NCBI RefSeq assembly: GCF_008831285.2
Contig: NC_045147.1
Coordinates: forward strand, 580,001 to 644,000
Reading direction: 5' to 3'
DNA from: Nymphaea colorata
Lineage: Eukaryota > Streptophyta > Magnoliopsida > Nymphaeales > Nymphaeaceae
Length of the DNA: 64,000 bases
Position 1 is the stretch's first letter, and every line of letters starts with the position of its first letter. Under the pieces are notes generated by a model. That model saw only the letters and a program-made list of their open reading frames with translations. It searched no databases and was not told the origin of the DNA. Shown piece by piece: positions 25,901 through 47,224 of this stretch. The position numbers were made by a program, and so were the translations under genes.

Positions 25901-27387
25901 TTGTCATGTTGAAAAGAATTCAAAGAGTGCGAGATGCACTTATTCATATGGTGTTTAGTAGAGAATGGAGCTTTTATCGGGTTGAAGATGAGGCTAAAGC
26001 TCAAAGTATTAAAAGCCTTATTGTTGAAGACGAATGGTGGGATAAAATTGCATATTTTTTGGATTTCTCAGAGCCAATTTGGTGCATGTTGAGAGCTGTT
26101 GATAAAGATGAACCTATGCTTCATAAAGTTTATGAAATGTGGGAAAATATGATTAAAGAAATTCAACATATAGTTTTTAAGAAAGAACAAAAAAACATTG
26201 TACTTAATAATTCAGAGTTCTTTGATTGCATAAGTACAATATTAGTTGAAAGATGGGATAAAAGCAATACTCCCTTGCATTGCATGGCACATTTTTTAAA
26301 TCCCAAATATTATACTAAAAAATGGATTGAAGGAACTCCTGAACGTGTTACTCCAAATCTAGATAGTGAGTTAAATGCTCAAAGAATGTCATGTATGGAC
26401 AGACTTTTTACATATTCTTATACCAAAAAACAAGCAATTTGTGAATATAACAAGTTTTTTTAGGAAATTTTACTTTAGAAGGTGCATCAACAGCAAGAGA
26501 AGATGATGACATGAGTCCTTTTGATTGGTGGGCATCTTATGGATCAGAAATGTCTGTGCTTCATAAACTTGCTTTGAAGTTACTATCACAACCTGTTACA
26601 TCATTGTGTTCTGAAAGAAATTGGAGTATATATGGTCATATACACAACATTAAAAGGAACAAGCTCACTAGCCAACGTGCAGAGAACTTGGTTTATGTGC
26701 ATTCTAATTTGCGTCTTCTTTTAAGGAAAGAAAAAGAATATAGGTATTTCTTTATTATGTTGTTTTGCTTTGCTCAATTTCTTATGTTGTGTTATATGGT
26801 CAATATTTTTTATTGTTTAACTTTCATCTTTAATAAAATGCAGTTGTGGATCATCTCAATATTGGGATGTAAATCCAGATGAATTTGATTTTGATGGAGA
26901 ACACAATTTACATATTGCTAACATGGATTTTTCTGATCCTGTTTTTCCTTTTGAGGCATTCGATGATGATGATATCATCGAAAGCATTGAAGAAAATCAA
27001 GATATTGCTGGAAGTGAAAGTGGAACGCAACTCTGACAATAGAGGTAATATGTATGAATTATGAATTATGACTATATGAACTGTGATTTGTGAATCTGTT
27101 ATTTTGTGAACTCAAAACTAGAGTATATTTCTTGTTGAATGTTGAACTTAAGTCTGTTGATTGATAATGATATTGATATCATGATTAGCAAATTGCTGTT
27201 TTGATGTTGTTATTTAATAATTTTGTGGTTTATGACAATTTTTTGTCATGTATATACTATATACATATTAATATTATTACAATAAATTAATTAATGATAA
27301 TAATAATAATAATAAATACTCTCACTGCACCACCGCACCTAAATTTTTTGAAATGTGCCACACCGGCACCCGCACCTTGGTGACATA
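22926..27387 (+). mobile_element. hAT transposon copy 2 (hAT2), complete, nested in Gypsy1
   Basis: A 4,462-bp element between perfect GCTTTTAA duplications. Termini are CCTATGATACCATGGTACGG on the left and, reverse-complemented, TATGTCACCAAGGTGCGG on the right, an imperfect terminal inverted repeat. Both ends have GGTGCGGGTGC-type GC-rich subterminal repeats (22975-23110 and 27325-27380). The single gene inside is a BED-finger hAT transposase on the plus strand. Removing the element and one duplication rejoins the Gypsy1 integrase frame (LLDKKRLKA to AEHVEAYRQ). Confidence 0.93.
24727..27036 (+). pseudogene. hAT2 transposase, broken but nearly full length
   Basis: Begins MANRRKVKEVVSDSP. 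A TGA at 24871-24873 interrupts the BED region (QPL, stop). The finger retains YCEATFIGSYTRIKAHLLKL but seems to lack the first Cys. The core has VSIVSDGWTDVQRCPLIN (about 25410-25460) and ITDN; a long intact stretch (25651-26463, 270 codons) covers the middle domain; the dimerisation domain (26510-26720) has LALKLLSQPVTSLCSERNWS. A splice pair (donor at 26744, acceptor ending 26843) joins KEY to a last exon (26844-27036) encoding an acidic tail with FDDDDIIESIEE. Frameshifts at about 25150 and 25640 and a stop at 26461 also inactivate it. Confidence 0.85.
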
Positions 27388-27395
27388 GCTTTTAA

Positions 27396-28380
27396 TCTCT
27401 TTTTATCTAACAAATCAAGCTGCATTAGCCTTTTTTGCTGATATTGATGTAAAGGAAACTCTATAAGAGAAGTGAACTTCAAAGCAGGTTTCAATACATG
27501 TAATGGTAAAACCACTTCAGTTCCATAGACTATCTCTACTGGAGTCGCATTTGTCAGAGTTCTCATGGTGGTGTGATATGTCCATAGAGTGGTATGCATC
27601 CTTTCATGTCAATCTCTTCTAGTTTCTACTGTCCTCTTCAAGATGCGGCTCAGGATCTTGTTAGTGGCCTCTACTTGTCCATTGCCTTGGGGGTAATAAG
27701 AAGCTAAGAAATGATGCATGGTATGGTACTTGCTGCACAACTGTCTCATCTTTTCATTTTTTAAATGAGTCCCCTTGTCAGACACTATCATGAGGGACTC
27801 CAAATCTGCAAAGAAGATTTTTGTGAATGATGGACACTACATGACGCCCTTCCACTATTATGAGTGTGACGACTTCTACCCATTTGGTAAAATAGTATGT
27901 TGCAGCAAAAAAATACTTATGGCCATTGGAAGCTGCAGGAGATATTGGTCTGACTACATCGAATGCCCACATTGAAAATGGCCAATGAGTTGTCATAGAA
28001 TGCAAGTGAGAGGCTGATGCATGGATTACTAGAGCATGCAGTTGACATTCTTTACATTTTTTGATGAACTGTTAACAATCTTTTTGCATAGTAGGCTAAT
28101 AATATCTTGCTCAAATTATCTGTTTGTTGAGGGTTTGGTAACCAACATGGCCCCCATAGTCTCTTCGATGTGACTCTTTGATGACTTCCCTTGCCTAATC
28201 TTCATTAAGGTACTGAGAGCATTTAATACTAAATCCACATTTGTATAGCACTCCTGCAAGAAAAAAGTACCTTGCTGACATACATTGAATTACTTTCTGT
28301 TCATTTTTTGGCATTCCAGTCAAGAATTCTCAGCTTTCAATGTATCTTTTAATGTATTGATACCAAGGCATATTCCCCTC
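27396..28380 (-). pseudogene. Gypsy1 integrase
   Basis: Minus-strand fragments give the zinc-binding end (KKCKECQLHA, about 28040), then the catalytic core with FDVVRPISPAASNGHKYFF (first Asp), VSDKGTHLKN (second Asp, about 27780) and SYYPQGNGQVEATNKIL (catalytic Glu, about 27680). YGTEVVLPLHVLKPALKF leads into the C-terminus. The catalytic triad can be read, but stops and frameshifts separate the pieces. The enzyme would insert the reverse-transcribed element into chromosomes. The frame is cut at 27395 by hAT2. Confidence 0.88.
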
Positions 28381-28848
28381 TTAGATATGATGTACATGCT
28401 TCATTGTTTCAAAAGCATGGTCTTTTAATCTTCCAATCTCAAAAGAATGGATTGCTTCATTGGTTCGAAAGGTGATGATGGACCCTAGACTCCCGAGACC
28501 ATCCGCAATAGGGTTACCTTCTCTCTTTATGTGAGCCAGTTGTACTTCTTCAAACTGACGGATCAAAGTGGTAGCGATCTCTTGATATGGCACCAATTTT
28601 TCGTCTTTGACTTGAATTTTTCCATTCACTTGGTTTACGATAAGTTGAGAGCCGCCGAAGACAAGTACCTTTTTCACTTGAAAACTTAGTAAAGAACGAA
28701 GTCCTTGTATGAGGGCTTCATATGCAGCCATGTTATGGGTACATAGAAAGTCAAGTTTCAAAGAGTACGGGATCATTTCATCTTCTGGAGTGATCAGTAA
28801 GATGCCTATACCAACTCTCATCATGTTTCTAGATCCATCAAAGTACAT
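28381..28848 (-). pseudogene. Gypsy1 second RNase H (archaeal-type, aRNH)
   Basis: MYFDGSRN followed by GIGILLITPEDEMIPYSLKL, then NMAAYEALIQGLRSLL and KVLVFGGSQLIVNQVNG: the aRNH fold, with Asp in YFDGS and Glu in YEAL. The third acidic position appears changed (VFGGSQL, usually V.GDSQL). Having this domain after the ordinary RNase H places the family in the Tat/Ogre lineage. The segment is open over 155 codons. Confidence 0.88.
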
Positions 28849-28938
28849 TTTTCATATCAGAATTGTTTCCAAACTAACTCTCATCACGTTTCTAGATCCA
28901 TCAAAGTACATTTTTCATATCGGAACTATTTCCAAACT
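28813..28938. repeat. 63-bp tandem duplication between the two RNase H domains
   Basis: The segment from AACTCTCATCATG to GTTTCCAAACT is repeated with a 63-bp period (28813 and 28876), with few mismatches. It duplicates the start of the aRNH (CTAGATCCATCAAAGTACAT on the plus strand). Gypsy2 lacks it, so it arose in this copy. Confidence 0.75.
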
Positions 28939-29376
28939 TATTACGTGTTCGTCCAGAAACTCATCGTTAGTTTTGATCTCAATGTATTGTGGAAAATATG
29001 TTGACTGATCTGCAATTGCTTGTCCTTTTATTGACTTCTGGGACACATATTCAAGATCATATTGCATGAGCAGAACTTGCCATTTGGCGATGTGTCCATT
29101 AAGGAAGGGTTGCTCCAAGATGTACTCAAGAGGATTTAGCTTGGAGAGTATCTTGACCTCACAAGCTAACAAATAATGTCTCTGCTTCTGACACATCCAA
29201 ACCAATGCTAGATAAGTTTTTTTTATTGGAGAGTACTTCTTCTCGTACTGGACAAAAGTTTTGCTAATGTAATAAATTGCATGCTTGATGCGACTTCCTT
29301 CTTCATATTGTGCCAAAAAGCTGCCACATGCTGACTCATTCACTGTGATGTAAAGCAGCAATGGTCTACCCAACAC
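28915..29376 (-). pseudogene. Gypsy1 RNase H (first, reverse-transcriptase-linked)
   Basis: An open segment of 153 codons: LLLYITVNESACGSFLAQYE, AIYYISKTF, KYSPIKKTYLALVW and LSKLNPLEYILEQPFLNGHI. This is the usual RNase H after gypsy reverse transcriptase, which removes the RNA strand. It is well aligned with Gypsy2 43094-43555. Confidence 0.9.
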
Positions 29377-29398
29377 CGGGGTTTTAGAATTGGTAGAT

Positions 29399-30387
29399 TT
29401 ATGAGGTATTTCTTGATCTTCTCAATGACTGTTGACATTCAAAACTCCATTCAAACTTGACGCATTTCCTTAACAGTTGGTTGAATGGTTCGCATCTCAG
29501 GGCTAGATTGGAAATGAATCGTCTGATAGACTGGATTCGCCCTTGCAAGCTTCGCAACTCCTTGATATTGTTAGGTGGTGGCATATCAATGATTGTTGTA
29601 GCTTTGGTGAGATCCATCTCGATCCTTTTCTTACTGACCAAGAAACCCAAAAGTTTACCTGATTCAATCCCAAACATGCATTTTTGAGGATTCAAGCGAA
29701 GCTTGTACTGCAAGAGTCTCTCAAACACCTAGGCGAGGGCTTCAATGTGATCTTCTCTTCTCTTGTATTTGATTAATATGTCATCGATATATGCATCCAT
29801 GATTTTATGCATCTGGTCACGGAAGATAGCGGCCATGGCTCTTTGATAAGTTGCACCAGCATTCTTCAATCCAAACGGCATCACAGTATAACAAAAGTGC
29901 CCTAGGGTGTAGTAAAAGTGGTTTTATGTTTATCTTTGACTGCTAATTTGATTTGGTTATATCTAGAACATCCATCCATAAAAGTGAACATGGCATGACC
30001 TGCAGTACTGTCTACCAACAAATCAACGTTCGAAAGTGGATAATTGTCTTTTGATGTGGCTTTGTTCAAGTCTCGAAAGTCGATGCATAATCTGACTTTA
30101 CCATTTTTCTTAGGGACCACCACAATGTTAGCCAACCATTCGAGGTAATCGATAGCACGAATCAATTTTGTCTTTAGTAGGTCCTCTAATCCCTCTTTTA
30201 CAGGCTCTTTTAGTCGAGGATCAAGTTTGCATAACTTTTGCTTAACTGGCTTGCAACTAGGATTTAAGGGCAAATGATGTTCAACCAACTGAAGGTTTAA
30301 GCCTTGCATGTCTTCATAAGTCCAAGCAAAAGCTTCTTGGTTACTTATAAGAAAGTCCACCAATCTTTTCTTCTTATATACTGACAA
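29399..30387 (-). pseudogene. Gypsy1 reverse transcriptase
   Basis: The first segment (30387-29902) has NQEAFAWTYEDM, RLCIDFRDLNKAT, YPLSN and FMDGCSRYNQIKLA. After a frameshift come FCYTVMPFGLKNAGATYQR and the catalytic YIDD box (29791-29780). The segment 29728-29399 has RLNPQKCMFGIESGKLLGFLVSKK. The catalytic Asp pair is kept here but not in Gypsy2. At least two frame changes prevent translation as one protein. Confidence 0.92.
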
Positions 30388-30399
30388 ACTGGTTCCAAT

Positions 30400-30640
30400 T
30401 TAAAGGATTTTAGGATTCTCACTAGTTCCAATATTAATCTCTTCAATTGAATCATTAACCAAGGATGAGGGATGTTCTTGTTTCTGAATCTGAGTGAATT
30501 CCTTGTTGATGAAATTTTGGATAATGTTTTTTATGACAAAATTATCCTCAATGTCATGACCAGAGGCACGATGAAACTTATATAGTTTTTTTTTATCTCC
30601 TCCCATCATTTTTGGAAGCTCTGATACTTTTGGCAAGACG
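30400..30640 (-). pseudogene. Gypsy1 gag-pol linker, knuckle-like, no protease
   Basis: Encodes LYKFHRASGHDIEDNF, the relic of the C-x-FH-GH-D-x-E-x-C motif typical of Tat gag-pol junctions, with both Cys replaced (Y and N). Within about 40 codons it reaches IEEINIGTSENPKIL, which normally leads directly into reverse transcriptase. A protease domain with a D-S/T-G site is not seen, so it seems deleted in this copy or family. Confidence 0.65.
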
Positions 30641-30822
30641 ATAGTTCCTTTGGCAAGGAGGTATTCTAGGATCTTCTCACTGAACTGACTGAGATGAGTG
30701 AATTTGTGGTCATAACCTCAGCCTGGGTGTTTGTTTTTCCTTTCATCATTGCCTTTGGGAAACTGTGTGTTCCTCTTATGATTGATTTCTTCGTCCAGCT
30801 TATAACTGGTGTTGTTGTCCTT

Positions 30823-32112
30823 TCAAATCTCGGCATTAGCTACGAAGTGTGCAGGCAACTGTGTCTTTCCTCCTTTCTTTCCATCTTCCTTATTCTTAGG
30901 AGCAATGATTCCACTAACATCACCTTCCTCAATTCCTTCCTCTATTGAATTTGTTTGTTCAATCAACTCAGCAAAAGTCTTGATTGGGGCATTACGGATG
31001 AGACTTTTCAAGGGCGGGCAAGATTTTTTCTAATGAGTGACAAAGCTTGTGTTTTAGAAATGGGTTCCTTCATCATGTTGCATTGAATTCTGCATTTTTA
31101 GATGAATTCTCGAGCCTTTTCTTCTTGTTTCTGACGGAGACTGCAAATGGTACTGAGGGTTGGGGCCATAGGAGCATTTTGCTCAAATCTTTCGACAAAC
31201 ATGTTAATCAATTTGTCAAATTCCTTTAAATTTGACCGGGTTGACATTGTCTTTGTACCATTGCGCCGCGATACCATCAAGAATTTTTGGAAAATAACGA
31301 AATAAAGCTCTATCATTTGTCTAGATTTTGTAGCAAGCATTGAAGAAGGTTGAAAGATGAACGTGTTGGCATGTGGTTCCATCATATTTGACGAACTCCT
31401 TGGGTAAGCCTTTCACGTCTTCGTCCCATTCAATACCAAGGTAGTAATCATCACATGAGTATGAGTGTTTTCTTTTTCCCCTGAGTTCAAGGTTATTCAT
31501 TCTTTTCTCCATTTCATAAAACATGCACTTAGTTGGAGTTTCATCATCACTTGATTCAACTAATTCTGGCTTTGTCTTTTTCTTCTTTCCCTTGATCTCT
31601 TTTACTTTTTCTTCAAAACTTCACTGTCCGAGCTACTGCTGGGGATATATTTTTTTGTCTTTTTGCCTTTTTTGGTAGGCTTTTTCTTTCTTTTGGATTT
31701 TTCTTTCGAACTTCAAGTGGTGATAGGGCTAGGTGAGCTACTTTCCCATAATTTCTTTTCCCATCTTGCTTCTCTTTGTTGTCTTTTTCTTCTTGAGAGG
31801 AAGTAGTTCAGGTTTTTCCTCCTTACTGGTTACTGAATCTGAACCCAGATAATCTTCATCCCAATCTAAAGGAGAAGTTTTGTTGTTTTTCTTCTTTCTC
31901 TTCTACTTGACAGCTTTTTCAATTTCTGATTTTGGAGTAAGCATCAGGGCCTTTTCTTCTTCTTGTTCCTTTAGAAATCGCTCCATGAACAACCAGAACA
32001 TAAGGTAGCCTTCTGGCTCAATTGTTGGGAGGTCAAATGTTTTTGGCCTAAGCTAGGAAGATGAAGTCTCGTTCTGAGGAGTCTGCTTATCTTGTGATTT
32101 TGTTTCAACCAT
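30823..32112 (-). pseudogene. Gypsy1 gag
   Basis: From an ATG at 32112 (MVETKSQDKQ) an acidic/lysine-rich N-terminal half runs through several stops. Then come FYEMEKRMNNLELRG and KGLPKEFVKYDGTTCQHVHL (about 31400). The retrotransposon-gag core follows: NLKEFDKLINMFVERFEQN and LSTICSLRQKQEEKAREFI (31385-31098). KSLIRNAPIKTFAELIEQ lies at 31011-30950. Gag would form the capsid of the virus-like particle. It is frameshifted repeatedly. Confidence 0.8.
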
Positions 32113-32289
32113 CTTATTGGCTTTCAAGTATCCACCTTATGAGACAAGAAAATGAGAGTCATTTGAGGAAAATGATGACAAAATGAAAGTTCATATTGCA
32201 TAAAGAGTTTTAAAAAGTTACATTCAAAGAAAACACCAACAAAGATGACAATGACATAAGGAGTGCAAAGTTGACAACATAAACTTTCA

Positions 32290-33779
32290 GGGAATGATTG
32301 ATGGTGGTCGGTTGGTATCCCACCACTCGGCATATTCCTTCTTTACCACTGGGCCTGTGAACCAAGTGTATCAGATCTGTGTCTTCCATTTTTGTCGAGC
32401 CACTGCAAACAATGCTGCCCATTGAGGAGAACTGAGGTCAAATTCGAGAATAGCTTCGATTGGTGCATGCAAAGAAACTATCTTCTGCTCTGAGAGAACT
32501 GTGTCGCGCATCTATCAGCACAATAATCAACTATGAAGTAAGGGCCCAAGAGTGTGGTACACCTATGATGATGGTGAGTGTATTGAGGCGGGCCCTGATG
32601 ACGATCACAATAGTCCCAAACGATCTCATCTCCATCCAACTGATCGATCAGACAACGGTATTGTTCTAAGATTGTCAATGCTCCATCAGTGTTTCTGAAT
32701 AGATTGGTTTGGGGTCCCGTGTGCTTGAGGAACCACAATTGCAAAGCATATGTGCATCCTTCTATAAAGAACATCTCCAACGGTGAAGCGGGTGAGTCCT
32801 CAGTAATAAAAAGTCAAGGTTGTCATTGCTACAAACAAGTGTCAGGTCCCACTATGCCCCCCCCCCCCCCATATCCGAAAAAATTGGGCAACACGAACAT
32901 TTAGGAGGTCACTTCCACTGGTGAAAAGGGTCACTCCCACTGTGCAAAGTATCATACAATGTTAATTTCTTCCTATGGCTTTTCGAGGTAAAGTGGAAGG
33001 CTCAACATAGGCTCCAAATTCTTCATACAAGTTTTTCAGGTTAATGCTTTGGTTTTCAAGGTTCTCTACTAGAGGCCAAGTTTTTCATCCAGTAAAGGGA
33101 GCAATAAGGTCATTTGCATGAACCTTGGTCGGGTTCATGAGGAATTGTTTTTTCAATGGTTCATTTGGGTCACAAGTTGGGGTGGGGAGGTCTAGTATTT
33201 CAGCAAATTCGTTTAATAACATTGTCATTTTTCCCCATAGAAACGAAAAAGAGGAGGTCCTTGGGTTCCATTGCTCGACAATTGCGTGCACCAAATTTCC
33301 ATCCACTGATCGCACTCCTCTGGCTGCCACTGTCTTGAGCTCACATTCTTCAAAATAAAAAAGAAACATCCAACATAATGTGGATGCCAAGACCAATACC
33401 ATTCGGGGGCCAAAGGTTTAAACTCAAGAGAGATGTAAGTAGACCGTTCAGACCCTTCCCCAAAGAGGATATGACCATAAGAGAAGGTAACACCACATTG
33501 GAAATAATACATCTTGAATGATGACTCTGAAGAGTAGAGATTAGATTAGTAAAAAAGATTGACTAGGTTGACAAAAACAATATGGAGTAGAGGTATATAA
33601 TGAGGTTGTAAAACATCACACAAGGTTTTATGCACATCCATATGACATTTGAAATAATTTTGGACAAAATAGATATATGAACCTAATTGAGATAATTTTG
33701 TGTCATGATAATCCAATGTCAAGTTATGCTTATATACTTTAGCTGAATCACTTAGTAGCATAGATTCTCCCTTGGGCAA
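32290..33779 (-). pseudogene. Gypsy1 ORF1 upstream of gag: PMD/aminotransferase-like domain
   Basis: A coding region before gag, in pieces: KHNLTLDYHDTKLSQLGSYI (33730-33670); EFKPLAPEWYWSWHPHYVGC; VHAIVEQWNPRTSSFSFLWG then KMTMLLNEFAEILDLPTPT (33330-33190). Next IEGCTYALQLWFLKHTGPQ and LDGDEIVWDYCDRHQ, and finally FTGPVVKKEYAEWWD at about 32330. The W-x-P-x-T/S-x-x-F-x-F-x-x-G-x-M-T-x-L-x-(D/E)-x-x-x-L-x-L-P pattern is that of the plant mobile domain. Its function in retrotransposons is unknown. Broken by frameshifts; Gypsy2 keeps longer stretches. Confidence 0.65.
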
Positions 33780-34309
33780 CTAATGGTAGGATTCATCAAC
33801 TTCTTCTTGATCACTCGTTGATATACCACAAATTACCACTCATGGTACTAACAAGGGGGCTTTCCCGCCCAAGGTGTAGTCCAGTTGTAAGGCTTAGTCT
33901 TGTGCTACTGCCTAAGACCAAGCCCGGCAACATAATGACCGGGACAAATAGGTATGAAGAATTTTGAAATATGAAAAATCATGCAAAATTAATTGTCCCT
34001 AATGCAATGTTACTTAATTTAATGATTAAAACAAATAGAAGAGCAAACATTGTTTTCAAACAACTCTTAAATTGAGGAGGGTTGTATTTGATACTATATC
34101 TAAGTGAACATGATTGATCATCCTTAATTAGTCTTGTATGCAAGAAAGCAAATACAATCACCAAGAAATGTAATGAAATGTTGATGGGGTCAAGGCCAAA
34201 GAAGGGAACATACTTTATCATCGGCAATATGGGAGATGTTCAAGTAAATAAAAATACATCGATGATAATCATATACAAACGATGACGGGGTCCCATCACG
34301 TTCGCCATC
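33780..34309 (-). other. Gypsy1 leader with candidate primer-binding site
   Basis: Between ORF1 and the 5' LTR. Two bases after the LTR the minus strand reads TGGCGAACGTGATGGGACC, a TGG-initiated candidate primer-binding site (about 34289-34307). Gypsy2 has TGATGACCATGATGGGACT at the same place. The tRNA was not identified. The leader is conserved with Gypsy2 39019-39589. Confidence 0.6.
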
Positions 34310-37300
34310 TGTTTGCATTCCCAAAATTTTATTTTTGGTTTTGGAGTGTTTCAGAAAAATGATTTGTTTTGAAAGTGAGAAAGAAAGGGACTCGCCCATC
34401 GGTACGAGGATCGACCGTTCCTGGCGCCCTTACTGGACGTAATCAATCCAAGGGCTATGTTTATTATTGATGCATTTCATTTTGGCTTAAACATCTTTTT
34501 CATTTTATATGTTATGTAGAAAAATATTGAAAGTTTGATGTTTCAAACTTTTGAAAAGGTTCTTGAATCATTACTTGAAAATGTGAAATATTTTAAGGAA
34601 AACTAAAATTGAGAAGTCTTTGTAAATATCATTTAGAAAGCTTAGGAAATCAGTTTGAAGTCATTTTAGTGATCCATTAAGACTTTAAGTAGGTTTGAGA
34701 TTTTGCTCTAATTCGGCTACTACTCAGTTAGAGCTCAATCTCATCTTGCTTAAGTTCTTTTAGAGATGTGCATGTGATCATTTGTGGTGTTAAGTGAATG
34801 TGGATGAATTAATGCATTAATCATATATGGTTCATTATTACCACAACTTTCATGTAAATGCATTTCTACCATCACATACATTCAAAATTTTTTTTTTCAT
34901 AATTATCATATATAAGAAGAAAAAATTTTTGAAAATGGATTGTGGTTGTAGACCATCAAGCATGAATCCAATATTGGGTCATTACTTGATTGTTGGTCTT
35001 GATTAAGTTGGTAAATAAAAAGATCATGAGAGGAAAATGTTAAAAATAATAGAAGATATGAAATACTCTCATGAAAAGAAAGAGATGGAGATATAGAGAA
35101 AGACATGCATATACGTAAACATACCATCATATATACACATATATGAAAGTTTAAAAGAAAAATGGTATTGATTTAAAGAGAAATAGATTTTAGAGTAAAC
35201 GATAAATATACACACGTATATATGTGTATGTATAAGAAATTTTGTAAGGACAGATATTTATTTTGAAAAGAGAAATAAAATATTCAAAAGAGAGGAAATA
35301 GAAAACATGTATATATGTATTCATGTGCATATGAAAATTTGTAAAATAGAATATGGAAGCATAGAGAGAGAAGGATAAAGGGAATCATCATGTACATATA
35401 TATGTATATAACATGTATATACACACGTGCCTTCATGAGATTCAAAATCAAGAAATGGCTTAAAATCACCGACTTCAAGTTTGCTGCAGGCCGGAGGGTA
35501 GCTTGGACTCATGCAAGAGCTTAGGCTAAGTCTCCAAAGCCATATTAGAAAGGGTTCTTTCGAAAATATTTTGGAAAATATGATTTCAAATATGTTTATA
35601 TATGAACATAAAACATTACAATTTCATTGGTTACAAGGAATTATGTTTCTTCTACCGTTGGGTATGGATGAAAATTAAACCATACAATAAGATGCTCATT
35701 AGGGTTCCTAAGCGGATTATTAGAAAGAAAACTACCGCAAAATGACATAAAAATACATACTAACATGTACATTTTCATGAGGGTTTTCTCCGGGTTGGAC
35801 AAGTCCCAACCTCAAAAATTAACATAAGAATAAAGGAAAAATCTCAATTCATACCCTTATTATCACCGTGCATTCACATGTAAATGGAAAATCAACCAAC
35901 TATACACGGATAATAACTTGAAACAAAGCAATATTCAAGGAAAGAGGAAGAGCATGATTCAACCATAAAATGAAATATCATATCATCTTCTCGTACTCTC
36001 GACGCACTCGAGCATAGCCTCTTAACTCTAAAATATAGATTGAGAGCTATCTTATATGGCCACGAGGGGATGAAGAGAAGAGAAAAGAAGAAAACCAAAA
36101 CAAGACTATATTTAAGAAAAAATAGAACATGATGCAATCATAAAATGAAAAGTCATCTCTTCTTCTCATGCTCCCGGTGCACTCGAGCATAGCTTCTAGA
36201 TTTTAAAATAGATATTAAGAGCTATCTTATATGGCCATGGGAAGATGAAGATGAGAGGAAAGAATGAAACCAAAACGATGCTATACTTAAGAAAATATAT
36301 AGCATGTTTCAATCACAAAATGAAATATCATTTCACCTTCTCATGTTCTCGGTGCACTCATAAATAGTCTCTTGACTCTAAAATAGAGATTTTAGAGCTA
36401 TCTTGTATAGTCATGGGGAGATGAAGAAGAGAAGAAATAAAAAAAAGTATGGAGTGGGATGTAGGTTACATACCTCTTATAAGAATGATTTTGGGAAGAA
36501 AATGATTATCCTTGCTTGGAATGATCATAGATTCACCTTAAATAGAGTTCCAAGATGATGAAGATGAGGCCTCCAAGAGATCTTCGTCCTTGAAGAGTTC
36601 TAGTTTGATGAAGCTTGCTCCAAGTTGGAGAAGAAGAAGAAGAAGGAAATGGAAATGGAAATGGAGGAAGAGAGATAAAAACTCTAAGTCCTCAGGTGAG
36701 AATGCACTAGAGCTTCTCCAAAGGCTAGCACCTTGCCCAAGAGGGAGAAAATAAGGGTATTTATAGAGAGTTTTGGAGTCAAAACTCAAAATTCAAATTT
36801 TTTTGAATTTCATAATATTTTCATGCGAATTTCAAATAATTTTGTATTATTTTCAATATTTTTTGAAAAGAAAAAGGTTTGAAATGAGTATGATTGGCCA
36901 TTAGACCGAAAATTCATTTTTTGAGGTGTAGGGAGGGTTAATGCCCACAAAAAATGTTCAAAAATGCACTCCAACGATCAATTTTTGAAGAAAAATGGGG
37001 CATGCGCACAAGGCAGACCCTAGAAGGCATCTTCGGCAACACGGTCGCGCAATGTGATCGCGTGCGATCACATGCGTGATTGCACAATGCAATTACGAAC
37101 GATCGCATGTGTGCGGTTACGCGTGGTCACGCGACCCCGCGTTGCGAGACATGTAGAAAAAAAACTTTTTTAAAATTTAAATAAAATCTGATAAAATAAA
37201 ATAAAATTTGTTGTTTATATAGGAAGCATAAAACATTTTTTTTTAATGTGTAAAAAATGATTTTTGTTAAAAATGGGCGGCCAACTGTAGTCTGTATTTC

Positions 37301-37570
37301 AGGCCACTCCGAGCTCATTTTGAATTCGATTTTGGTTCAGTCGGTTGTCGACTCGTTCGAGTGTGCGGCTTGGGTTTAAAACATGTTTCGGCATGATAAT
37401 GCGACCTTAAAACAAAGGGTAGGTCCGCACAGGTACGACGCTCAAATTTTGGGTTTGAAATGTTTGATTTAGATCTGAACTTGGGTTTTGGATCTAATTT
37501 AGATCCAAAAATTAGATTTTGTATTTTGGTAAAAGAGTGTAGCATTTTTGAAAAATTTGGGGTGATTACC
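34310..37570 (-). repeat. Gypsy1 5' LTR (3.26 kb)
   Basis: Begins on the plus strand TGTTTGCATTCCC and ends GGTGATTACC, next to the CTGCT duplication at 37571. It contains the same three 175-bp tandem repeats as the other LTR (35952, 36127, 36302) and a decayed CpG-rich patch (about 37025-37150). It would drive transcription leftward. Confidence 0.93.
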
Positions 37571-37672
37571 CTGCTGCATCTGAAATAACTTGGATTAGCT
37601 ATATATTGAGAGATATTGGAGGTTGTTTACACAAAACACTTGTCCTGTATTGTGATAAGCTATCAGCCTTTT
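37571..37672 (+). pseudogene. copia RNase H remainder, separated by the Gypsy1 insertion
   Basis: This 102-bp piece reads ASEITWISYILRDIG and then YCDKLSAFY, the continuation of the copia RNase H that stops at 18916. It begins with the second copy of the CTGCT target duplication. It ends where homology to the Gypsy2 LTR begins. The rest of the copia RNase H and its 3' LTR were not found. Confidence 0.85.
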
Positions 37673-37836
37673 ACATATTGTTTTATGAATTTTCATGTAC
37701 ACATGAATTCATATATATATGTGTGTGTGTGTGTGTTGCATTTTCCCTCTCTAGAATCTTTTGTTTCTCTCTCTTCAAGTTAAATGTCTTCCTCTACAAA
37801 TTTCTTACATATATTGAATTTTCATGTACACATGAA

Positions 37837-37897
<61 letters not shown>

Positions 37898-39018
37898 CCT
37901 CTAAAATCTCTCTCTCTTCTAGTTAATACCCTCTTTTTATAAACTTTCATATGTGTGTAAAATGATAGTAGGTACATGTATATGTGCATTTCTCTATTTC
38001 TCTCTCTCTCTCTTTTAAGATCTTTTTTTTTCTCTCTATTTAAGTTAATACTTCATTGTCACATGATTTCACATATATACGTGTACATATATGCATACAT
38101 ATACGTACATACATGTATGTATATGCATATAAAATACATATAAAAATACGTATCTCTCCTTCTCTTTTAAAATCTTTCATTTAGTGATCTTAAAAATCTC
38201 TTTGTCTCTCTTTTTCCTTTTATGGGAGTATTTCATCTTTTTCATTCTTTTTTAGATGATACTATTTCTCTAAAGATCTAAGGTTTTAACTTCCAATTCG
38301 TCGACTTCACCAACGCCAAAAATTAAGTAATGACTCAATATTGAAATTATGCTTGATGGTCTACAACTTCATTCCATTTTCAAAAACTTTTCTCTCTTCA
38401 TAAAAATATTTACAACAATTACACCAAGAAACTTAGATGTATGTGAGTGTAAGAATGCTTTTAAAAGAATGTTATGGTAAGAATGAATAATTTCTTTCTA
38501 ATCATGCAAGATAAATGCATTCATGCATTCATATTCACTTAACACTATGAATGATCATAAGCACCTCTCTAAAAAAACATAAGAAAGATGAGATAGAGGT
38601 CTAACTAGGTAGTAACCAAATTAGACAAAACATCAAGCCTACTTAAAGTCTTGAGAGAACACCAAAGTGATTTCCAAAAGTGATCTTCAAATCAAAATGA
38701 TATTTATAAAGATTTTTCCACTCAATATTTTCCTAACCAAAAAATTTTACATTCGTCAAAAACTTTCTCAAAAGTTTGAAACATCAAATCTCCAACATTT
38801 TCTCAAACACAACACCATATTTAGAATTAAAAAGATGTTTAAGCCAAAACGGAATGCATCAAGGATAAGCATAGCCCTTGAGTTGGTTACTCCTGGTAAA
38901 GGCGCCGAGAACGGTCAATCCTCGTACCGATGGGCGAGTCCCCTTCTCTCTAATTTAAAATAAAAACATGATTTTTTTGGAGCACTCCAAAAACTAAAAA
39001 TTTTTGGGAATGCAAACA
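37673..39018 (+). repeat. Gypsy2 5' LTR, truncated
   Basis: Homologous to the last third of the Gypsy1 5' LTR (about 35357 to 34310) and to 45990-47224. It ends GGGAATGCAAACA. Near its left end a 129-bp duplication (37687 and 37816, GAATTTTCATGTACACATGA) encloses a (TG)n run, and an (AT)n run lies at about 37840-37895. Confidence 0.88.
37836..37896. repeat. (AT)n microsatellite
   Basis: About 60 bp of nearly pure TA dinucleotides within the Gypsy2 5' LTR. Confidence 0.95.
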
Positions 39019-39589
39019 GATGATGACCATGATGGGACTTGTCATCGTTTGGTTACGATTATCATTGATGTATTTCCATTAACTTGAACATCTCATATAT
39101 TGCCGATGATAAAGCATGTTCCCTTCTTTGGCCTTGATTCCATTGGCATTCCATTACATTGCATGGTGATTGTGTTTTCTTTCTTGCATATAAGACTAAT
39201 TGAGGAGGATCAATCATGTTCACCTAGATCTAAGATCAATCATATTCACTTAGATCTATGATCAAATACAACCTTCCTTAATTTCAGGCTTGATTGAAAA
39301 TAATGTTTGTTCTTCTACTTATTTTAGTCACCATCTTAGGAAACATTGCATTAGAGACAGCCGATTTTACATGATTTCTCATATTTCAAAACTCTCCATA
39401 CCTATTTATTCTGGTCCTCACGTTGTCGGGCAGGGTCTTAGGTGGTAGCACAAGACTAAGTCTTACAACTAGCACACCTTGGGTAGGAAAGGCCCCTCGT
39501 TAGTACCATGGGTAGGAACTTATGCTATGTTGACGAGTGACATAGAAAAAGTTGATAAACCCTATCCTTAGTTGCCTAAAGAAGAATTT

Positions 39590-41071
39590 ATGCTAGTAGT
39601 AAGTCATTCGACTAAAGTATATAAGCAGAGCTTGATATTGGATTATCGTGATGCAAAATTATCTCAATTAGGTCCCTATATCCCTTTTTCTCTAAAATTA
39701 TTTTACATGATACAAGTATAAAGGATGTTGGTGTGCATAAAACTTTATGTGATGATTTGCACCTCATTATATATCTTCATTTCATATTGTCTTTGTCGTC
39801 CTAGTCAATCTTTTCCACTAATTTAATCTCTACCCTTCAGAGTCATCATTCAACATGTATTCTTTCCAACGTTGTGTCACATTCCCTTATAATCACATTC
39901 TCTTTGAGGAAGGACCCGAATAGTCTACTTATATGTCTCTTGCGTCTAAACTTTTGGCTCCCGAATGATATTGGTCTTGGCATCTCACCTTATCTCAGAT
40001 GTTTCCTTCCTACTTTGAAGAATGTGAGCTAGAAATAGTGGCAGCCGGAGGAATGCAATTAGTGAATGAAAATTTGATACATGCAATTGTCGATTGATGG
40101 AACCCAAGGACCTCTTTTTGGTTTCCATAGAGAGAAATGACAGTATTATTCGATGAATTTGCCAAAATACTAGACCTCCTCACCCCGACTTGTAACCCAA
40201 ATGATCCATTGGAGAAACAATTCCTCATGAACGCGACTAAGGTTAATGCAAGTGACCTTATATCTCCTTTTACTGGACGAAAAGCTTGGCCCCTAGTAGA
40301 AAACCATGAGAGTCAAAGTATAAACCTGAAAAATCTGCATAAAGAATTTGGAGCCTATGTTGAACCTTCCATCTTATCTCGAAAAGCCATAGAAAGAATT
40401 AAATATTATATGATGCTTTGCACAGTAGGTGTGACCCATTTTACTAATGGAAGTGACCTCCTAGATGTTCACATTGCCCAACTTTTCGGAAATAGGGACA
40501 TAGTAGAACCCGACACTTGTCAATAGCAATGACAGCCTTGGCTTTCCTTTACCAAGGACTCGTTTGCTTCACCATTGAAAATACTGACTTCATTGAAGGA
40601 TGCAAATATGTCTTACAATTGTGGTTCCTCAAGTACGAGGGACCCCAAGCGAGTTTGTTCAGAAACACTGATGAAGCATTGACAATCTTAAAACAATACC
40701 ATCGTTTGATCAAGTAATTGGATGGAGATGAGATCATTTGGGACTATTATGATTGTCGTCAGAATTCCCCTAGATGCATTCACCATTACCATGGTCGTAC
40801 CACACTTTTGGGCCCTTATGTCATAGTTGATTATTGTGCTGATAGATGCATGAGACAATTCTCTCAGAGGCAGAAGATGGTTTTTATTTATGCACTAATT
40901 GGAGCTATTCCTGAATTCGACCTCAGGTCTCCTCAATGGGCGGCATTATTCACAGTGGCTCGACAAGAGTGGAAGACACAAATATCATACACTTGGTTCA
41001 CAGGCCCAGTGGTAAAGAAGGAATACGCCAAGTGGTGGGATGTCAACCGACCACCACCCATCCTTCTTTAA
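39590..41071 (+). pseudogene. Gypsy2 ORF1 upstream of gag: PMD/aminotransferase-like domain
   Basis: Starts MLVVSHSTKVYKQSLILDYR. Long open pieces: MTVLFDEFAKILDLLTPTCN through YYMMLCTVGVTHFTNGSDLL and FGNRDIVEPD (40137-40526), then SIAMTALAFLYQGL, IEGCKYVLQLWFLKYEGPQ and, past one TAA (40715-40717), MDGDEIIWDYYDCRQ to YTWFTGPVVKKEYAKWWDVN (to 41071). The PMD pattern covers the G-x-M-T-x-L motif, a YLL-like helix and an ALAHLY-like helix. With the TAA read as sense it would be a protein of about 480 residues. It ends well before gag, so it is a separate ORF. Its role is unknown. Confidence 0.7.
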
Positions 41072-41251: not shown

Positions 41252-42003
41252 ATGGTTGAAATCAGAGCACAAGCTAACCAGGTTACTCAGAACGAGGCTT
41301 CATCTTTTGAGCCTATGGCAGAAACACTTGTCTTCCCAACAATCGAGGCAGAAGGCTACCATATGTTCCTGTTTTTCATGGAGTGATTCATGAGTGAACA
41401 AGAAGAACAAAAGGCTCTAATGTTTACTCGAAAACCAGAAACTGAAAAGTCAGTCAAGCAAAAGAGAAACAAGAAAGACAACAAATCCTCTCCTACAGAT
41501 CGAGATGAAAGTCATATAGATTCAGACTCAGCAACTAGTAAGGAGGAAAAACCCAAATTGCTTCCTCTCACGAAGAAAAAGACAACAAAGAAAAGCAAGA
41601 AAGGAAAAGAAATTGTAGAGGAAAGCAGTTCACCTAGCCTTATCACCAGTGAAAGTTCGGAGGAAAAGCCAAAAAGAAAGAGAAAGCTTGCTCAAGCAGT
41701 AGCTCAGATAGTGAGATTTCTAAAAAGAAAATAAAGGAGATCAAGGGTAGAAAGAAAAAGACAAAGCCAGAATTAGTCAAATCAAGTGATGATGAAAGTC
41801 CAACTAAGCTCAAGTTTCATGAAATGAAAAAAAGAATGAGCAACGTCAAACTTGGGGAAAAGGAAAACGCCCATACTCATGAGAGGATTACTACCTCGGT
41901 ATTGAAGGAGACAAAGACGTAAAAGGGTTTGTCCAAGGAGTTTGTCAACTATGATGGAACTACCTGCCCACACGTTCAACTTTCAACCTTCATCAATGAT
42001 TGC
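41252..42003 (+). pseudogene. Gypsy2 gag, N-terminal part
   Basis: Starts MVEIRAQANQVTQNEASSFE. A TGA interrupts it after FLFFME (about 41384); a long Lys/Glu/Ser-rich stretch with KKKTTKKSKKGKEIVEESSS follows. The last recognisable part, KGLSKEFVNYDGTTCPHVQL, ends at about 42003, where an inverted block begins. The gag core helices found in Gypsy1 (31385-30950) are missing. Confidence 0.8.
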
Positions 42004-42364
42004 TAGAGATCCTTGTTGATGAAATCTTAAATAATGTTTTTGAGGACAAAACAATCCTCAGTGTTATGACCAGGGGCATGATGAAACTTACATAGTTTTT
42101 CTTTATTACCTCCTATCATTTTCGGATGCTCTGACATTTTTTGTAAGACGATAGTTCCTTTGGTAAGGAGGTATTGTAGGATCTTCTCGTGAGGCTGACT
42201 GAAAGGAGTGAACTTCCGATTATAACTCTAACCTAAGTATTTGTTCCTCCATTCTTTATTTCCATTGGACAGTTGTGTGTTCTTTTTGTGGTTAGCTTCT
42301 TTGTCATGCTTATAACTGCTTATGCTGTCATTTTGAATGTCGGCATTAGCTATTAAGTGTGCGG
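42004..42364 (-). other. inverted internal block of Gypsy2
   Basis: This 360-bp block matches Gypsy1 30493-30850 in the same plus-strand orientation, although the rest of Gypsy2 is in the opposite orientation to Gypsy1. It is therefore inverted within Gypsy2. The neighbouring segments (equivalent to Gypsy1 30850-31320 and 30115-30490) are deleted on either side. It carries the knuckle/linker region in antisense. Confidence 0.88.
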
Positions 42365-43093
42365 GAGAAAAATGGCAAAGTCAGACTATGCATTGACTTT
42401 TGAAACCTGAACACCAAAAGATGATTGTTCACTTTAAACATTGATTTATTGGTAGATAGTACTACAGGCTATACTATGTTCTCTTTTATGGATGGATATT
42501 CGAGATATAACCAAATGAAATTAGCAGTCAAGGATCAACATAAAACCGCTTTTACTACACCCTGGGGCACTTTCTGTTACACGGTGATGTCATTTGGGTT
42601 AAAGAATGTCAGAGCAACTTATCAAAGAGTCATGGCTGCTATCTTCCATGAGTAGATGCACAAAATCATGGATGCATATATCTGTGACATACTAATTAAA
42701 TCTAAGGCAAGAGAAGGTCACATTGAAACCCTCGTCAAAGTGTTTGAGAGACTCTTACAATACATGTTTCGTTTGAATCCTCCAAAATGTGTATTTATGG
42801 TTAGATCAGGTAAACTTTTGGGCTTCATGGTCAGTAAAAGGGGGATCGAGATGAATCTTACCGAAGCTAAAGCAATCATCGATATGCCACCACCTACCAA
42901 TATCAAGGAACTGTGAAGTTTGCAAGGGCGAATTCAGTCCATGAGATGATTCATTTTCAATCTAGCCATAAGATGCGAACCATTCAATCAACTGTTGAGG
43001 AAATGCGTCAAGTTTGAATGGGATTTTGAGTGTCAATAGTCATTTGAAAAGATCAAGAAATACATTTTAACTCCACCAATTCTAAAACCCCCG
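42365..43093 (+). pseudogene. Gypsy2 reverse transcriptase, N-truncated, mutated active site
   Basis: Begins within the KVRLCID region, directly after the inverted block. It keeps VDSTTGYTMFSFMDGYSRYN and FCYTVMSFGLKNVRATYQR. The catalytic box reads YICD (42677-42688) instead of YIDD: codon TGT at 42683-42685 in place of an Asp codon. The thumb/connection RLNPPKCVFMVRSGKLLGFM follows. Stops and a missing N-terminus rule out activity. Confidence 0.9.
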
Positions 43094-43555
43094 GTGTTGG
43101 GTATGTCATTGCTGCTTTACATTATAGTGAATGAGTCAGGATGTGGTGGCTTTTTGGTACAATATAGGGAAGGAAGTCGCTTCGAGCATGCAATTTATTA
43201 TATTAGCAAAACCTTTGTCCAGTATGAACAGAAGTACTCTCCCATGAAAAAAACTTGTATAGCATTGGTTTGGATGTGTCAGAAGATGAGACATTATTTA
43301 TTAGCTTGTGAGGTCAAGATACTCTCCAAGCTAAATCCTCTTAGGTACACCTTGGAACAGCCCTTCCTTAATAGGCGCATCGCCAAATGGCAAGCTTTGC
43401 TGATGCAATATGATCTTGAATATGTGTTTCAAAAGTCAATCAAAGGACAAGCAATTGCCGATCAGTTAGTAGATTTTCCCCAGTACGAGGAAATCTGCAC
43501 CAACGATGAGTTTTCAGACAAACATGTACTAAGATTGAAAACAGTCCCAGTATGA
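43094..43555 (+). pseudogene. Gypsy2 RNase H
   Basis: Open over 153 codons: LLLYIIVNESGCGGFLVQYR, AIYYISKTFVQYEQKYSPMK and LSKLNPLRYTLEQPFLNRRI. Collinear with Gypsy1 29376-28915. It would have degraded the RNA of the RNA/DNA hybrid. Confidence 0.9.
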
Positions 43556-43558
43556 AAG

Positions 43559-43700
43559 ATGTTCTTTGATGGATCCAGGAATGTGATAGGAGCAGGTTTA
43601 GGATCCACAATCTCTTTTTGTACCAACAAAGCAATCTGTTCTTTTGATATTGAAAAATTAGAACATCTTGCTTTTGAAGCGGTGAAGCATGTACATCATA
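43559..43700 (+). pseudogene. Gypsy2 aRNH, internally deleted
   Basis: Starts MFFDGSRNVIGAGLG and jumps directly to STISFCTNKAICSFDIEKLE. In Gypsy1 about 100 residues (from GIGILLITP to DGLGSLG) lie between these points. The junction falls in a short similar sequence (TTTAGG / TCTAGG), so a microhomology deletion is likely. Confidence 0.85.
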
Positions 43701-44938
43701 TCCAAGAGGGAAATATGCTTTGGTATCATGACATCAAAAGATACATTGAAAGTAGAGAATTCCCGATTGGAATGTCCAAAAATGAACAGAAAGCAATTCA
43801 ACGTATGCCAACAAGGTACTTTATTCTTGCAGGAGTGCTATACAAACGTTGATTTAGTATTGAATGCTCTCGGTACCTTGATGAAGATTAGGCAAGGGAA
43901 GTCATCGAAGAGTCACATAGAGGAGACTATGGGGACCATGTTGGTTACCAAACCCTCACCAGTAGATAATTCGAGCAAGATATTATTGGCCTACTATGCA
44001 AAAAGATTGTTATCAATTCGTCAAGAGATGTAAAGAATGTCAATTGCATGCTCCAATGATCCATGCACCAGCCTCTCACTTGCATTCTGTAACATCTCCT
44101 TGGTTGCTTTCAATATGTGCATTTGATGTAGACAGACCAATATCCCCTGCAACTTCTAAGAGCCATAAGTGTTTTCTTGCTGCTACAAACTATTTTACCA
44201 AGTGGGTAGAAGTCGTGTAGTGTCCTTCATTCACAAAAATCTTCTTTGCAGATTTGAAGTCTCTCATAATATAGTATCTGATAACATGACTAATTTCAAA
44301 AACAAAAAGATAAGGCAGTTGTGTAGCAAATAACGTATCATGCATCATTTTTCAGCTACTTATTACCCCCAAGGTAATGGGCAAGTAAAGACCACCAACA
44401 AGATTCTGATCTGCATCTTGGAGTGGGCCGTGAAAACTGGAAGAAATTGGCATGAAAAGATGCATAACGCTCTGTGGGCATATCGCACTACTATGAGAAT
44501 TCCAACGAATGATACTCTAACAGAGCTAGTCTACGAAACGGAAGTGGTTCTACCATTACACGTACTAAAACCTGCTTTGAAGTTCGCTTCTCTCATACGG
44601 CTCCCTCTAAATCAATATCAGTAGAAGTGGCTAATGTAGCTCGATTTGCTGGATGAAAAGACACTAAAAGCGGCTGAGCAAGCTCAAGCCTATCGCCAAA
44701 GGGTGGCTAGACAATTTGTCAAATCAGTTATCAAGAGATATTTCAAAGTGAACGACTTAGTCCTACGATCTGTGGTGTACCTTAAAGGACGGCCATGGGG
44801 TAAGTGGGCAGCAAAATAGAAGGCCCATATGTTATGAAGGAAGTTTTGCCTCGTAATTCATACTGATTGATTGATTCTGATGGGGTGGAACTTGTCGACC
44901 CTGTTAAGGCTCTTCACCTCAAGAAATTCTACACCTAG
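43700..44938 (+). pseudogene. Gypsy2 integrase and pol C-terminus
   Basis: Zinc-binding KRCKECQLHAP (about 44025), then ICAFDVDRPISPATSKSHKC (first Asp), NYFTKWVEVV and SDNMTNFKN (about 44280). TYYPQGNGQVKTTNKIL (about 44360-44410) has Lys where Gypsy1 has the catalytic Glu. YETEVVLPLHVLKPALKF and FKVNDLVLRSVVYLKGRP then run to ALHLKKFYT and the stop at 44936-44938. Several stops and frameshifts. Confidence 0.88.
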
Positions 44939-45059
44939 TCCTCTTGTACTCATTTTCCAATCAATGACAAATATTTGTGTTTTGCACATTCAATCTACTA
45001 TTCATTTTAGATTATTTTCAGTCATAAAATGTAACGATTACACTGGGGTATTTTTTATT

Positions 45060-45195
45060 TTATTTTATTATCGATCAATACTTGAGAGCAACCCATGCAG
45101 GTAAGGGGTAAACCTGCAATGCAAAGCAACTCATGCAAGTAAGGGGCAAACCTGCAATGCAAAGCAACCCGCTCAGGTAAGGGATCAAACCTTTT
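45060..45195. repeat. short tandem repeats, about 37-bp unit, upstream of the 3' LTR
   Basis: Three imperfect copies of AGCAACCCATGCAGGTAAGG plus AAACCTGCAATGCAA. Gypsy1 has a related but more diverged set at 22380-22510, so the array belongs to the family's 3' untranslated region. Confidence 0.7.
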
Positions 45196-46028
45196 TCTTT
45201 CCTTACTTTTTCCCTTCTTCATCTCTCCATGGCCATATGAGACAACTCTCAAATTTTCATTTCGAGTTAAAAGCTATTCTTGAGTGCACTGAGAGCATGA
45301 AAAGGTGAAATGATATTTCATGTTATGATTGAAATATGTTTCTCCCTTTTCTTGAATGTTGCTTCCTTTTGAGATATTATTCATGCATAGTTGATTGATT
45401 TTTTCATTTATATGTGAATGAATCGTGAGAATGAGTGTCTGGGTTGGGATTCTTCTCTATTCTTATGTTGATTTTGAGGTTGGGGTTTGTTCAACTGGGA
45501 AAGCCATTCACAAATATGTACATGTTAAAAATGTATCTTCATGTCATTCTTACGTTTGGTATCCTTCTTAATCACCCAATTAGGAACCCTAATGAGTGTC
45601 TTATTATGTTGCTTGATTTTCTTCCATACCCAATGGTTGAAGAAATATATTCTTTTGTAACAAACAAAATAATAATGTTCTATGTTAGTATGTAAAATAT
45701 TTGAAATCATGTTTTTCAAAATATTTTCAAAACTTAGTATGTAAAATATTTGAAATTATGCTTTTCAAAAGATTTTCAAAACCAATAACCCTCTCTAATG
45801 AGGCTTTGGAGACTTAGCTCAGACTCATTCATGAGCCCAAGTTTCTCTCTGGCCTATATAAAAATCCAAGTTGGATATTTTCAAATCATTTCTTTGTTTT
45901 TCAATCTCATGAAGATATATACGTATATACATGTTAAATATGTATATGTGCACATTATGATGTTATTTATCCTTCTCTCTTCATGGTTCCACATATTGTT
46001 TTATGAATTTTCATGTACACATGAATGC

Positions 46029-46059
<31 letters not shown>

Positions 46060-46162
46060 CACATATCTCTTTTCCTCTAAAATCTCTCTCTCTCTTCGAG
46101 TTAATACTCTTTTTTATAAACTTTCATATACGTGTATGTATGATAGTCGGTACATGTATATG

Positions 46163-46214
<52 letters not shown>

Positions 46215-47224
46215 GATCTTCTTTTTCCTCTTTATTGAAGTTAATACTTCATTTTTATAAGCTTTCACATACATACGTGTACATACATGTATACATATAC
46301 ATATATATATGTATGTATATGCATATAAAATACATATAAAGATACGTATCTCCACTCCTCTTTTAAAATCTTTCATTTAGTTATCTTTAAAGTCTCTTTG
46401 TCTCTCTATTTCTTTCTATGGGAGTATTCCATCTTTTTCATTATTTTGGATGATATTTTTTCTCCAAAGATCTAAGGTTTTAACTTCCAATTCGTCGACT
46501 TCACCAAGTCCAAAAATCAAGTAATGACCCATTATTGGAATCATGTTTGATGGTCAACAACCCGATTCCATTTTCAAAAACTTTTCTCTCTTCATAAAAA
46601 TATTTACAACAATTACACCAAGAAACTTAGATGTATGTGATGGTAGGAATGCTTTTAGATTAATCTTATGGTAAAATTGAATGATTTATTTTTAATTATG
46701 TAGGATCAATGCATTCATGCATTCACATTCACTTAACACCATGAATGATCACAAGCACCTCTCTAAAAGAACTTAAGCAAGATGAGATGGAGTTCTAACT
46801 AGGTAGTAGGTAGTAACCGAATTAGAACAAAACCTCAAACTAACTTAAAGTCTTGAGAAAACACCAAAGTGAGTTCCAAAAGTGATCTTCAAAGATTTCC
46901 AAATGATATTTATAATGATTTTTCCATTCAAGATTTTTTAAACCAAAATATTTTTACACTCTTCAAGAACTTTCTCAAAAGTTTGATACATCAAATCTCC
47001 AACATTTTATCAAACACAACATCATATTTAGAATGAAAAATATGTTTAGGCCAAAATGAAATGCATCAAGGATAAGCATAGCCCTTGGGTTTATTACCCC
47101 CAGTAAAGGCACCGGGAGGGTCAATCCTCGTACTGATGGGCGAGTCCATTTCTCTCTAATTTAAAATAAAAACTTCATTTTTCTGGAGCACTCCAAAAAC
47201 TAAAAAAAAATTGTGATGCAAACA
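45195..47224 (+). repeat. Gypsy2 3' LTR, 5'-truncated
   Basis: Similarity to the Gypsy1 LTR begins at about 45195 (equivalent to about 36430 in Gypsy1), so the polypurine tract and the first 1.1-1.2 kb of the LTR are deleted. It contains a (TC)n run (46170-46210) and (AT)n stretches and ends GATGCAAACA at 47224. Confidence 0.85.

What the first reader, a model, noticed from the sequence alone, without database searches (positions are those of the whole stretch)
32290..41071. A Tat-lineage retrotransposon family with a plant mobile domain-like ORF upstream of gag
Both Gypsy copies carry, between the leader and gag, a coding region with the W-N/R-P-x-T/S-x-x-F-x-F-x-x-G-x-M-T-x-L...L-x-L-P pattern, a following MMLCTVGVTHF-type helix and an ALAFLY-type helix. 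Together these look like the plant mobile domain / DUF7745-like fold known from MAIN/MAIL proteins. It is separated from gag by about 180 bp, so it is a distinct ORF. Tat/Ogre elements are known to have an extra ORF1 of unknown function; a PMD-like identity suggests gene capture in one direction or the other and a possible role in countering host silencing.
Basis: partly seen in the sequence, partly recalled or inferred. Interest (0 to 1): 0.75.

Follow-up and report, generated by a model that had tools for sequence, protein, structure and literature searches.

The report
Ogre-type retrotransposon with plant mobile domain
Two old, dead copies of a giant plant jumping gene each carry, ahead of their capsid gene, the remains of a gene for the plant mobile domain; this pairing is already described for this kind of element, so the finding is real but ordinary.

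Summary
The window has two degenerate, head-to-head Tat-type Ty3/gypsy copies: A, minus strand (18917-37570, bounded by a 5-bp target-site duplication), and B, plus strand (about 37.8-47.2 kb, 5' truncated). Between leader and gag both keep the remains of a separate ORF of about 405 codons. Four of its pieces match PF10536 (plant mobile domain, PMD) in collinear order (E 6e-7 to 0.03; none reaches Pfam's cut-off alone); none of 27 other window pieces does. A second RNase H between RNase H and integrase puts copy A with angiosperm Tat (Ogre or Retand); the PMD points to Ogre. DUF7745 was not found.

This is a known kind: PMC6317226 reports PF10536 in 57% of Ogre elements; PMC5418596 has PMD clades encoded only by Gypsy elements, direction of capture open. 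Purifying selection on ORF1 is suggestive, not shown: its codon-position pattern resembles pol's (p=0.07 against 3e-5). The anti-silencing role is untested. Genome-wide copies could not be reached. New member of a known kind; low interest.

The parts
18917..37570 (-). Copy A: whole element, 18,654 bp, with CTGCT target-site duplications at 18912-18916 and 37571-37575
   Evidence: the empty site reads through as a copia RNase H-like frame (family recognised from memory)
34310..37570 (-). Copy A 5' LTR (about 3.26 kb, with a 175-bp tandem repeat)
   Evidence: identity to 3' LTR 88.4% over 3226 aligned sites
18917..22261 (-). Copy A 3' LTR, preceded by a polypurine tract AAAAAGGGG
32287..33512 (-). 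Copy A ORF1 (plant mobile domain), broken by stops and frame breaks; start inferred from the ATG shared with B
   Evidence: PF10536 in 33085-33417 (E 6e-7) and 32478-32813 (E 0.016)
30403..32123 (-). Copy A gag remains (lysine-rich N part, gag core, zinc-knuckle-like motif)
   Evidence: PF03732 only E 0.034, below its cut-off; zinc-knuckle-like motif recognised from memory
27342..30399 (-). Copy A pol remains: RT (PF00078), RNase H (PF17917), second RNase H (PF13456), integrase (PF00665, E 0.024 and 0.097 only); no protease motif seen
37815..39018 (+). Copy B 5' LTR, truncated at its 5' side
   Evidence: 89.0% identity to 46004-47224 over 1187 sites
39855..41071 (+). Copy B ORF1 (plant mobile domain), broken by stops and a frame break
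   Evidence: PF10536 in 40718-41071 (E 0.0015) and 40496-40714 (E 0.031)
41252..42365 (+). Copy B gag remains; 42010-42365 lies inverted relative to A
42425..45101 (+). Copy B pol remains: RT (PF00078 in one piece), RNase H and integrase by similarity to copy A; the stretch holding the core of the second RNase H in A is missing
45192..47224 (+). Copy B 3' LTR (5' edge approximate)

Best explanation
These are two old, inactivated copies of one Ogre-type (Tat lineage) Ty3/gypsy family whose ORF1, between the 5' leader and gag, coded for a plant mobile domain protein of about 405 residues, the domain filling roughly its last 330 (shown, from pieces). In active relatives ORF1 would be read first from the full-length RNA, giving an accessory protein separate from Gag (inferred from position and strand). 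The most likely action, by analogy with MAIN/MAIL1, is in the nucleus, as a binding partner of PP7-type phosphatases or of host PMD proteins, affecting how the element's chromatin or RNA is handled (inferred; I give this step about 0.25). The confidence below is for identity and anatomy.
For: PF10536 in four pieces of the two copies in profile order 13-52, 143-185, 222-287, 257-346 of 347, and in 0 of 27 distinct pieces elsewhere. Long LTRs, 5-bp target-site duplication, second RNase H between RNase H and integrase, which PMC6317226 gives as the Ogre/Retand layout, with PF10536 in 57% of Ogre elements. ORF1 differences between the copies fall on codon positions as in pol. MAIN and MAIL1 bind each other and PP7L and act in silencing (PMC7156037, PMC9899485, passages).
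Against: No single piece reaches Pfam's cut-off for PF10536, and the 131-residue piece 40131-40526 had no match at all. No tree of RT or PMD was made, so Ogre rather than Retand rests on the PMD alone. A typical Ogre has a protease and an intron between gag and RT; no protease motif was found between gag and RT in A or B. Selection on ORF1 is only suggested (p=0.07), and nothing here shows that its protein acts.
Confidence: 0.88

Rival explanations
1. ORF1 is a real PMD relic but gave the element no benefit: a passenger gene kept only because it sits inside a mobile unit.
For: The codon-position test on ORF1 is not significant (48, 35, 55 differences of 285, 286, 286 sites; p=0.07); on a longer gapped alignment the two halves gave p=0.13 and 0.38.
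Against: The ORF1 rates by position (0.168, 0.122, 0.192) resemble those of pol (0.172, 0.107, 0.195; p=3e-5) and do not differ from them (p=0.90). Most of the A-B divergence arose after insertion (LTR pairs K2P 0.127 and 0.120, A-B ORF1 about 0.19), which blunts the test. PF10536 recurs in 57% of Ogre elements.
Confidence: 0.15
2. The PMD protein blocks host silencing, for example as a decoy for MAIN/MAIL1/PP7L.
For: Host PMD proteins act in TE silencing (passages); PMC5418596 speculates about anti-silencing use of PMDs captured by MULE elements.
Against: No data here; the Gypsy PMD-A clades are separate from clade PMD-C of MAIN and MAIL, so binding to the same partners is not a given.
Confidence: 0.12
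3. The PMD resemblance is chance and ORF1 is an unrelated extension of gag.
For: Each match is below the curated cut-off; three of the four have E between 0.0015 and 0.031, a range where clearly unrelated families also appear for other pieces.
Against: Order along the profile, contributions from both copies, absence in 27 other pieces, one match at E 6e-7, and the known presence of PMD in Ogre. A stop and 90 to 180 bp separate it from gag.
Confidence: 0.03

Closest known systems
Ogre elements (Tat lineage, Ty3/gypsy) with a PMD-coding extra ORF
   Same: Long LTRs, second RNase H between RNase H and integrase, PF10536 in an extra ORF (PMC6317226, sections 9 and 13 read)
   Different: Both copies here are dead; no protease motif found between gag and RT; B carries an inversion in gag and lacks the stretch with the core of the second RNase H
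PMD-A1/PMD-A2 clades of Gypsy-encoded PMDs (PMC5418596, passages)
   Same: PMD coded by a Gypsy element
   Different: Clade membership not tested here; no reference sequences were at hand
MAIN/MAIL1 (PMD-C, host genes)
   Same: Share the PF10536 domain
   Different: Host genes with a known part in silencing; the ORF here is inside a retrotransposon and broken

Membership tests
Tat lineage of Ty3/gypsy | Second RNase H domain in the polyprotein | tested here: met
   Copy A: PF17917 E 1.7e-21 then PF13456 E 8.6e-16; copy B lacks the matching stretch
Ogre/Retand (angiosperm Tat) | Second RNase H lies between RNase H and integrase | tested here: met
   Order in A: RNase H 28918-29421, second RNase H 28384-28851, then integrase pieces from 28071 (weak PF00665)
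Ogre | PF10536 in an extra ORF (57% of Ogre elements; Transposase_28 in 23% of Retand) | tested here: met
   from pieces below the cut-off; shares from PMC6317226
Ogre | gag-protease ORF and RT ORF separated by an intron | tested here: not met
   In A 32 residues separate the gag zinc-knuckle-like motif from the EEINIGT stretch before RT; the motif D-x-G-S-x, searched in both strands of both copies, gave 3 hits, all in A and none between gag and RT. A deletion in A is possible and B is rearranged there, so this counts against a complete Ogre, less against descent from one
Ogre | PBS complementary to tRNA-Arg (PMC9289625, passage) | tested here: inconclusive
   TGGCGAACGTGATGGGAC follows the 5' LTR of A; no tRNA sequence was compared
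Ogre | Place in an RT-RH-INT tree | not testable with these tools
   No reference retrotransposon sequences at hand
Plant mobile domain PF10536 | Score at or above the 34.9-bit gathering cut-off | tested here: not met
   Best piece 29.4 bits; pieces only, since the ORF is broken and was not read through, so the whole-protein cut-off was not fairly tested
Plant mobile domain PF10536 | Collinear coverage of the profile | tested here: met
   Profile 13-52, 143-185, 222-287, 257-346 in order
DUF7745 | Profile match | tested here: not met
   No match at E up to 1 in the ORF1 pieces scanned; that the library holds this model was not checked

The most novel reading that the evidence does not exclude
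The Gypsy-encoded PMD is a counter-silencing factor that competes with MAIN/MAIL1 for PP7L, and host PMD silencing genes arose from such element genes, making this an arms race within one domain.
Probability: 0.1. Interest if true: 0.65.

Novelty: new member of a known kind. Interest (0 to 1): 0.2.

Why it matters
The PMD links a giant retrotransposon lineage to host silencing genes, and what the element's own PMD does is still open in the papers seen. These two dead copies confirm the association in one more window of plant DNA but do not by themselves make the question testable; intact copies would.

Tried and rejected
Genome-wide copies: the genome search on the window's own genome was asked nine times with the same request and each time did not complete. 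The search for related loci with one ORF1 piece (40131-40526) found no relative in viral contigs (7 pattern matches, 0 confirmed) or genome contigs (47 pattern matches, 0 confirmed). PDB sequence search with the same piece: 0 matches at E up to 1. Hence no family tree and no dN/dS on intact copies.

Selection on the A-B pair: a first version of the codon-position test gave pol p=1e-6 and ORF1 p=0.25 (52, 42, 57 of 303 each), but it read one integrase block in the wrong frame and ran ORF1 past its stop. The re-read block on its own runs the other way (25, 12, 13 of 122 each, p=0.03). On the longer gapped alignment ORF1 gave p=0.13 and 0.38, the leader p=0.54, and two gag stretches p=0.07 (pattern reversed: 15, 14, 6 of 57 each) and 0.46. 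The correction lowers my odds for the passenger reading from 0.20 to 0.15; nothing else was changed. The K2P of leader 0.21, ORF1 blocks 0.19-0.20, and pol blocks 0.15-0.18 with one at 0.24 says little.

A control scan with reversed proteins was spoilt by typing errors and is not used; the control is the 27 other window pieces.

Rejected: gag extension; DUF7745; the reading of 32290-41071 as one feature. Steinbauerova 2011 (extra ORFs in Ty3/gypsy), cited for this in passages of four papers that I saw, is not held. Passages of PMC7264820, PMC3212565 and PMC11152179 added nothing on PMD in Ogre. Papers were searched for PMD with retrotransposon, Ogre, PF10536 with gypsy, MAIL1, DUF7745 and Ogre with ORF1.

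Full report
What is there. Self-comparison of the window shows two related LTR retrotransposon copies lying head to head. Copy A, minus strand, runs 18917-37570: LTRs of about 3.3 kb, 88.4% identical over 3226 sites (K2P 0.127), and a 5-bp duplication CTGCT on both sides. Joining the flanks with one CTGCT gives an open frame that reads like a copia RNase H (recognised from memory; PF22936 and a weak PF00665 at 15851-17159 fit a copia element there), so the boundaries are exact. Copy B, plus strand, has a truncated 5' LTR from about 37815 and a 3' LTR ending at 47224 (K2P 0.120 between them over 1187 sites).

ORF1. Downstream of each leader and upstream of gag, on the same strand, lie the remains of an ORF of about 405 codons: 39855-41071 in B, 33512-32287 in A. 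Both are broken by in-frame stops and frame breaks, so pieces were searched apart. PF10536 was matched by 33085-33417 (profile 13-52, E 6e-7), 40496-40714 (143-185, E 0.031), 32478-32813 (222-287, E 0.016) and 40718-41071 (257-346, E 0.0015). The order in the DNA is the order in the profile. Of 37 distinct pieces scanned (38 entries, one given twice), 10 were from the ORF1 region, some in other frames, and 4 of these matched; 0 of the other 27 did. The 131-residue piece 40131-40526 gave no match. No piece reaches the curated cut-off of 34.9 bits, and unrelated families reach E-values near 0.001 to 0.05 for other pieces, so three of the four matches would mean little alone; PMD is the only family that recurs among the ORF1 pieces.

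Lineage. Copy A has RT, RNase H, a second RNase H and (weakly) integrase in that order. PMC6317226 (sections 9 and 13 read) says that two RNase H domains are unique to Tat and that this position marks Ogre and Retand of angiosperms, with PF10536 in 57% of Ogre and Transposase_28 in 23% of Retand elements. The copies therefore look like Ogre. Against a complete Ogre: the motif D-x-G-S-x, used as a sign of protease, was not found between gag and RT in either copy (3 hits in all, elsewhere in A), and only 32 residues separate the gag zinc-knuckle-like motif from the stretch before RT in A (motifs recalled).

Selection. Corrected test: between A and B, pol differences by codon position are 115, 72, 130 of 670, 671, 667 sites (p=3e-5); ORF1 differences are 48, 35, 55 of 285, 286, 286 (p=0.07). 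The two patterns do not differ (p=0.90). This suggests, without showing it, that ORF1 was constrained like pol before the copies died. Each copy has decayed since insertion (LTR K2P 0.120-0.127 against about 0.19 between the copies in ORF1), so the pair has limited power. One integrase block runs the other way, gag stretches are flat or reversed, and the longer ORF1 alignment is not significant. Not settled.

Literature. PMD in Gypsy elements is established: PMC5418596 (passages) describes clades PMD-A1 and A2 encoded exclusively by Gypsy elements, tends to favour domestication of the host genes from elements but calls the question open, and speculates on anti-silencing use for MULE PMDs; PMC9289625 (passages) found PMD the most frequent atypical domain in the plant Gypsy elements it screened; PMC7156037 and PMC9899485 (passages) show MAIN and MAIL1 with PP7L acting in silencing, with the mode of action unclear.

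Verdict. Real, correctly read as PMD in a Tat element, and already known as a kind. What this PMD does for the element remains open; this pair of dead copies cannot tell.

Noticed in passing
22926-27387: A 4,462-bp hAT-type insertion inside copy A between integrase and 3' LTR, flanked by the 8-bp duplication GCTTTTAA, with a Dimer_Tnp_hAT match E 3.6e-14.
   Followed up: yes
13245-14983: A second hAT-like coding stretch; 14056-14958 is 67% identical to 25762-26671 within the hAT insertion; its own piece 13969-14331 had no hAT match in Pfam.
   Followed up: partly
15851-18916 and 37571 to about 37680: A Ty1/copia-like element split by the insertion of copy A, apparently within its RNase H region; copy B's LTR begins just beyond.
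   Followed up: partly
42010-42365: In copy B a 356-bp stretch of gag lies inverted relative to copy A, with sequence of A missing on both sides of it.
   Followed up: partly
30403-30717: No protease motif between gag and RT in copy A; either an internal deletion or a family without its own protease.
   Followed up: partly
57623-58051: RWP-RK domain (PF02042, E 5.3e-21), likely a host gene.
   Followed up: no
2319-2759: Minus-strand carbon-nitrogen hydrolase fragment (PF00795, E 4.3e-11), likely an exon of a host gene.
   Followed up: no
11077-11427: zf-RVT match (PF13966, E 3.1e-11), as in non-LTR retroelement remains.
   Followed up: no
20531-21059 and 35921-36445: A 175-bp unit repeated three times in tandem inside each LTR of copy A.
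   Followed up: no
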